From: Sulfurovum sp. | GTDB lineage: Bacteria; Campylobacterota; Campylobacteria; Campylobacterales; Sulfurovaceae | DNA: 42,215 nucleotides | Assembly (NCBI GenBank): GCA_020721345.1 | Contig: DYMX01000011.1 | Location: 1 to 42,215 of the forward strand | Direction of reading: 5' to 3' | Shown here: positions 26,751-26,814 of the stretch, one piece after another | How the letters are laid out: each line of letters begins with the position of its first letter | Numbering within the stretch: the stretch's first letter is position 1 | The notes under the pieces: generated by a model | Seen by the model: only the letters and a program-made list of their open reading frames with translations | Databases searched by the model: none | What the model was told of the DNA's origin: nothing | Made by a program: the position numbers and the translations under genes

Positions 26751-26814
26751 AAATTTTAAGCAAAGCTTAAAATTAGGTCTTCAGCAGACGGCTCTCGCAA
26801 CATAGTTGCTCTTT
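26751..26814 (+). ncRNA. Copy A of a two-copy, three-hairpin structured element
   Basis: AATTTTAAGC-AAA-GCTTAAAATT; GTCT-TCAGC-AGAC; GCAAC-ATA-GTTGC; about 80% identical by hand alignment to 35431-35494 (minus). Confidence 0.6.

What the first reader, a model, noticed from the sequence alone, without database searches (positions are those of the whole stretch)
26751..26814. Two-copy intergenic RNA-like element (copy A) with three hairpins and compensatory changes relative to copy B
In transcription sense, copy A is AAATTTTAAGCAAAGCTTAAAATTAGGTCTTCAGCAGACGGCTCTCGCAACATAGTTGCTCTTT. It aligns by hand with the minus-strand segment 35494-35431 at about 51/64 positions. Three successive hairpins form in both copies: H1 AATTTT(AA/GG)GC-AAA-GC(TT/TC)AAAATT, H2 (G/C)TCT-TCRGC-AGA(C/G), H3 GC(A/G)AC-(A)TA-GT(T/C)GC. 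The stem differences compensate: an A-U to G-C change in H1 (plus an A-U to G.U), G-C to C-G in H2, and A-U to G-C in H3. All other differences fall in loops, linkers or the flank. Copy A lies between a TATAAT (26724-26729) and tRNA-Arg, so it should be transcribed as a leader or separate small RNA. It matches no family I recognise.
Basis: partly seen in the sequence, partly recalled or inferred. Interest (0 to 1): 0.85.

Follow-up and report, generated by a model that had tools for sequence, protein, structure and literature searches.

The report
REP-like mobile hairpin repeat, two copies
The two matching hairpin sequences in this window are copies of a small, previously uncatalogued repeated DNA element that has spread through many sulfur-oxidising and related Campylobacterota genomes, landing next to and occasionally inside genes, and it behaves like mobile single-stranded DNA rather than like a regulatory RNA.

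Summary
Copies A and B match at 51 of 65 aligned columns, far above anything else in the window. All three hairpins and their compensatory changes are real. "Two-copy" is wrong: the genome (Sulfurovaceae-like, 1.24 Mb) has at least 16 copies, relatives have more, and a related, commoner form (type II) is in 98 of 301 genomes of the order. No Rfam family matches.

The functional-RNA reading is not supported. (1) Copies lie in both orientations relative to neighbouring genes. (2) Orthologous sites are filled or empty; copy A was inserted between the tRNA-Arg promoter and the tRNA. (3) One copy is a 75-nt in-frame insert in a restriction-modification gene. That strand carries GTAG just 5' of hairpin 1 in 46 of 64 type II copies, the strand signature of REP elements used by Y1/HUH transposases.

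Best reading: a composite REP-like mobile element family. The window copies are a derived subfamily without GTAG. The mobilising enzyme is unproven: Y1 genes are not adjacent, and 14 copy-rich genomes have none.

The parts
26737..26817 (+). Copy A of the type I element (conserved 5' leader TCTGATTGATTCTC, H1, H2, H3, CTCTTT)
   Evidence: the finding's coordinates 26751-26814 are its core
26752..26774 (+). Copy A hairpin H1 (AATTTTAAGC-AAA-GCTTAAAATT)
   Evidence: covariation
26777..26789 (+). Copy A hairpin H2 (GTCT-TCAGC-AGAC)
26797..26809 (+). Copy A hairpin H3 (GCAAC-ATA-GTTGC)
26813..26843 (+). Degenerate remnant of the fourth hairpin (left arm TTGAGACCTCTGAATA kept, right arm decayed); the 3' end of the insert is somewhere in this stretch
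   Evidence: comparison with L050, L051, L068, L052 and the empty site in G002
26724..26729 (+). TATAAT, -10 of the tRNA-Arg promoter, present without the element in G002; context, not part of the element
26849..26925 (+). tRNA-Arg (anticodon gcg) downstream of copy A
35428..35500 (-). Copy B of the type I element; old insertion, orthologous in at least six species
35468..35494 (-). Copy B hairpin H1; its 5' arm contains the rpmB stop codon TAA (35493-35491)
35455..35467 (-). Copy B hairpin H2 (CTCT-TCGGC-AGAG)
35436..35447 (-). Copy B hairpin H3 (GCGA-CTAG-TCGC)
35491..35703 (-). rpmB (ribosomal protein L28), directly upstream of copy B; the gene's last residues NN-stop lie in the element's 5' edge

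Best explanation
The feature is two copies of an interspersed, non-autonomous, REP-like mobile DNA element of Campylobacterota, made of three stem-loops (four when complete). The window copies are type I. A more widespread form (type II) shares hairpins H2 and H3 and carries the tag GTAG just 5' of hairpin H1 on the complementary strand. Shown: dispersed copies, filled/empty sites, insertion in either orientation, tandem arrays, in-frame insertion into a gene, stem covariation, and tolerance of G.T (wobble) pairs on the complementary strand. Inferred: the complementary strand folds as single-stranded DNA and is cut and joined there by an enzyme of the Y1/HUH (TnpA-REP-like) kind, or was in the past. 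Copies then persist as passive passengers near genes. For copy A this puts the element in the 5' leader of the tRNA-Arg transcript; for copy B it supplies the rpmB stop codon.
For: At least 16 copies in the genome; 82 copies in the genome and its relatives. Filled/empty orthologous sites at groES-groEL, pyrD, rpsR, accD, deaD, argB and glmS and at tRNA-Arg. Gene orientation around copies is mixed: type I ++21, --16, +-10, -+17; type II ++16, --16, -+7, +-2. A 75-nt in-frame insert (H1, H2 and H3 intact) in an Eco57I-like R-M protein is absent from about 40 homologues. H1 mismatches in distinct hairpins are A.C 44 vs G.T 3 (type II), 24 vs 9 (type I, genus) and 6 vs 1 (type I, others), i.e. wobble on the complement. 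GTAG immediately 5' of H1 on the complement in 46 of 64 type II copies. TnpA-REP binds and cuts only the GTAG-bearing strand of REP, as ssDNA (PMC8266576). Tandem arrays of 66-86 bp units.
Against: Type I lacks GTAG (mostly CTAA). No Y1_Tnp gene lies within about 1.5 kb of an element in the Y1 loci checked. Fourteen genomes with at least 8 type II copies have no Y1_Tnp hit, including the single-contig G185, G216 and G314. Y1 and type II co-occur more than expected (66/98 vs 82/203, odds ratio 3.0), but this is not corrected for kinship. No clear target duplication or cleavage motif was found. Old orthologous copies (rpmB) keep pairing by compensation, which passive decay alone would not predict; conversion from other copies or palindrome-templated repair is assumed.
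Confidence: 0.65

Rival explanations
1. It is a functional structured RNA (leader element or small RNA) transcribed in the sense given by the first reader.
For: Stem covariation; copy A lies directly downstream of a promoter.
Against: No orientation bias to genes; H1 mismatches are A.C rather than G.T, the opposite of RNA pairing in that sense; empty sites at core genes; coding insertion; promoter conserved without the element.
Confidence: 0.05
2. It is a functional RNA made from the complementary (GTAG) strand, for example a mobile small RNA or an RNA-protein binding site.
For: Wobble tolerance is on that strand; the linear core TACGCTAACGCTnnGTTnTCTTCAGCAGA is highly conserved across families; many copy-rich genomes lack Y1_Tnp.
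Against: Orientation is symmetric to flanking genes, so most copies would need their own promoter on that strand; one copy is translated in the other sense within an ORF.
Confidence: 0.14
3. It is a dsDNA protein-binding or bidirectional terminator/nucleoid element retained by selection at gene ends.
For: Median distance to the left gene is 13-14 nt; H3 followed by CTCTTT resembles a weak terminator; rpmB copy kept in six species with compensatory changes.
Against: Copies also sit between divergent genes and between promoter and gene; strand-asymmetric mismatches are not expected of a dsDNA site; the presence/absence pattern at core genes is patchy.
Confidence: 0.1
4. It is a classical MITE moved by a DDE transposase through terminal inverted repeats.
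For: Full-length copies have partial inverted complementarity between TCTGATTAA..TCTCAAA and TTTGAGA..TTATTCAGA.
Against: Ends vary, most copies end at CTCTTT, no consistent target duplication, and type II lacks these ends; a DDE parent element was not searched for.
Confidence: 0.06

Closest known systems
GTAG-tagged REP superfamily (Di Nocera et al. 2013, PMC3733652) with TnpA-REP/RAYT
   Same: Dispersed palindromic repeats in intergenic DNA; GTAG directly 5' of a stem-loop on one strand (type II, 46 of 64); structure polarity on the GTAG strand; tandem arrays. That paper reports GTAG and CGTC repeats in a Sulfurovum strain, so type II may overlap a published family whose sequence is only in a figure I could not read.
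   Different: Units of 75-110 nt with three or four conserved hairpins instead of 20-40 bp single ones; the window's type I lacks GTAG; no adjacent RAYT; copy-rich genomes without any Y1_Tnp.
CGTC-tagged REP superfamily (same paper)
   Same: Palindromic repeats present in the same genus; the paper states they have no linked transposase, like this element.
   Different: Different sequence. CGTCATTGCGAG-type repeats occur in this genome as a separate family.
Rickettsia palindromic elements (RPE)
   Same: Short palindromic repeat inserted in-frame in a protein gene.
   Different: Mainly intergenic here; no sequence relation tested.
MITEs such as Correia/NEMIS, ERIC, RUP
   Same: Short, non-autonomous, interspersed, structured, near genes.
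   Different: No consistent terminal inverted repeats or target duplications found.
Rfam structured RNAs
   Same: Covarying stems.
   Different: No family at gathering threshold for type I or type II; only chance-level hits at relaxed threshold.

Membership tests
GTAG REP superfamily | GTAG (or GTGG) 0-2 nt 5' of a stem-loop on one strand | tested here: inconclusive
   Met in 46 of 64 type II copies; not met in type I (CTAA 45 times, GTAG not among the tags listed), the form in the window.
GTAG REP superfamily | Multi-copy, dispersed, intergenic palindromes, sometimes in arrays | tested here: met
GTAG REP superfamily | Single-strand polarity: the GTAG strand is the folded substrate | tested here: met
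   A.C vs G.T 44:3 (type II) and 24:9 (type I) in H1 on the finding's strand, i.e. wobble on the complement
GTAG REP superfamily | Linked or co-resident TnpA-REP/RAYT | tested here: not met
   No Y1_Tnp near elements; 32 of 98 type II genomes and 12 of 38 type I genomes lack Y1_Tnp
GTAG REP superfamily | Processing by a Y1 enzyme in vitro | not testable with these tools
   needs cleavage assays
Cis-regulatory RNA | Consistent orientation relative to a regulated gene | tested here: not met
Cis-regulatory RNA | G.U wobble tolerated in the transcribed sense | tested here: not met
Known Rfam family | Score at or above the gathering threshold | tested here: not met
MITE (DDE) | Terminal inverted repeats plus target site duplication | tested here: inconclusive
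   partial inverted ends in full-length copies; no consistent duplication

The most novel reading that the evidence does not exclude
A Campylobacterota-wide family of composite three-hairpin mobile elements that is moved as single-stranded DNA (or through an RNA) by a conserved factor other than the known Y1/RAYT transposases, since copy-rich complete genomes lack any Y1_Tnp gene.
Probability: 0.25. Interest if true: 0.75.

Novelty: new variant of a known kind. Interest (0 to 1): 0.5.

Why it matters
It adds a widespread, uncatalogued repeat family to a phylum whose small mobile elements are poorly described, and shows one such element adding 25 residues in-frame to a restriction-modification enzyme. 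The A·C versus G·T test is a simple way to tell which strand of a palindromic repeat is the folded one, and so to separate single-strand mobile DNA from RNA or dsDNA explanations. Copy-rich complete genomes without Y1_Tnp raise a testable question: what moves CGTC- and GTAG-like repeats when no RAYT is present?

Tried and rejected
Rfam at gathering and relaxed thresholds: nothing. RAYT adjacency: no type I or II element within the fetched flanks of the Y1_Tnp genes checked; the exception is L228, where a Y1 gene lies 2 kb away. Literature searches for a named Sulfurovum/Sulfurimonas repeat found only PMC3733652. Viral contigs: six exact pattern hits, one of them (L314) a type II-like copy. Terminator-only reading rejected on orientation and divergent sites. 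The first alignment (A1) mixed strands and was discarded. A precise target duplication was sought at seven empty sites and in the R-M gene; AT-rich flanks and divergence blurred the ends.

Full report
WHAT WAS CHECKED. Copy A (26751-26814, +) and copy B (35494-35431, -) align at 51 of 65 columns; the next best local match of A in the window scores 25 against 64. Both fold into the three hairpins described, and the DNA fold is 3.4 to 3.5 standard deviations better than shuffles on the sense strands. Profiles built without the window copies still find both: 8.5e-24 and 2.8e-17 with copies mostly from other genera, and 2.4e-6 and 4.6e-8 with the related type II model.

NOT TWO COPIES. The genome that holds the window has at least 16 copies. 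Relatives in the genus carry up to about ten each, and 82 copies were collected. In a sample of 301 genomes of the order, type I is in 38 genomes from 19 of 81 genera. A scan for the H2-H3 core across a species-level genome collection hit mainly Campylobacterota: Sulfurovum, Sulfuricurvum, Sulfurimonas, Sulfurospirillum and unnamed Campylobacterales. It also revealed a commoner form, type II, in which H1 is followed by CTACGCTAACGCT before H2; type II is in 98 of the 301 genomes. One relative, G010, has a contig length equal to that of a Sulfurovaceae record in that scan, so the window is probably from Sulfurovaceae (inference).

STRUCTURE. On 56 type I copies, 90% of stem cells pair, 14 of 21 pairs show changes on both sides (shuffled mean 8.3) and 104 cells are double changes (shuffled mean 32.4); sliding the partners destroys the signal. 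Full-length copies have a 5' leader TCTGATTAATTCTC and a fourth hairpin TTGAGACCTCTGAATA..TTCAGAGGTCTCAA; copy A keeps one arm of it.

WHICH STRAND FOLDS. In a structured RNA, G·U pairs should be commoner than A·C mismatches in the functional sense. Here it is the reverse. Counting each distinct H1 once, A·C against G·T is 44:3 in type II, 24:9 in type I of the genus and 6:1 in type I elsewhere (column counts). On that strand, GTAG stands directly 5' of H1 in 46 of 64 type II copies. This is the geometry of GTAG REPs, whose Y1 enzymes act only on the GTAG-bearing single strand (PMC8266576). The counts treat copies as independent, so the p-values printed are optimistic; the direction is the same in all three sets.

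MOBILITY. Orthologous intergenic regions are filled in this genome and empty in close relatives at groES-groEL, pyrD, rpsR, accD, deaD, argB and glmS. Copy B is old: it is at the same place after rpmB in six species, with compensatory stem changes between orthologues, but absent in G004 and replaced by another repeat in G009. Its H1 contains the rpmB stop codon. Elements lie in all gene orientations and form tandem arrays.

INSIDE A GENE. A type IIG (Eco57I-like) restriction-modification protein of this genome carries RDSIGGKALNASLQQTAHGAGAV.. between KKADGAIY and VVGVIELK. It is a 25-residue insert absent from about 40 homologues and present in three others. The DNA is a complete H1-H2-H3 element. 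Element-wide, one sense frame is open in 41 of 65 copies, which may help such inserts survive.

WHAT MOVES IT. Unproven. Y1_Tnp genes are common in the order and co-occur with type II more than expected (66 of 98 against 82 of 203; odds ratio 3.0, not corrected for kinship). But 14 genomes with at least 8 copies have none, including single-contig assemblies, and elements do not flank Y1 genes. A published survey found the Y1 subclass prevalent in epsilonproteobacteria not to be associated with REPs (PMC6006769). So the element works like a REP; membership with a living RAYT partner is not shown, and type I lacks the GTAG tag.

VERDICT. Real, repeated, mobile and structured on the opposite strand; not a two-copy leader RNA. 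I rate it a new variant of a known kind.

Noticed in passing
L330 / G000 C47:57003-59027 (-): The same R-M gene also encodes VIATTSLRGGKQSTDGLPRPEGLAVTN just before DVVIGNPPY, which reads like an in-frame CGTCATTGCGAG-type REP; the homologue in L351 has SVIPAQAGIH at that place, another repeat-like peptide. This methylase linker seems to be a landing site for short palindromes.
   Followed up: partly
L002 and L023 downstream flanks: A separate repeat family CGTCATTGCGAGCRAAGCGAAGCAATCC is present in the genome next to two element copies.
   Followed up: no
L167 (G009, rpmB 3' end): Where copy B sits in six relatives, G009 has a different palindrome, GTCACCCCGAACTTGTTTTAGGGTCTC.
   Followed up: no
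L080, L052, L104, L091, L077, L088: Some copies have H2 replaced by a longer palindrome made from the H3 5' arm (e.g. CGCGAGnGCTCTCGCG), as if by template switching in the hairpins; this could create apparent covariation in single events.
   Followed up: partly
L024, L048, L066, L074, L078, L088: Copies follow the end of the same gene (..ANKIVDxETN-stop) in six genomes of the genus, another old shared insertion whose 5' edge overlaps the stop codon.
   Followed up: partly
L054/L209 and L103: The H2-H3 module occurs immediately after tRNA genes in other genera.
   Followed up: no
L196, L205, L236, L238, L243, L290 (one Sulfurovum MAG): Type II copies are flanked by a further hairpin repeat, GAGTTCTTGCAGAACTC, on their 5' side.
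   Followed up: no
window 25283-25353 (-): Weak type II-like match (11.4 bits, E 0.34), probably chance.
   Followed up: no
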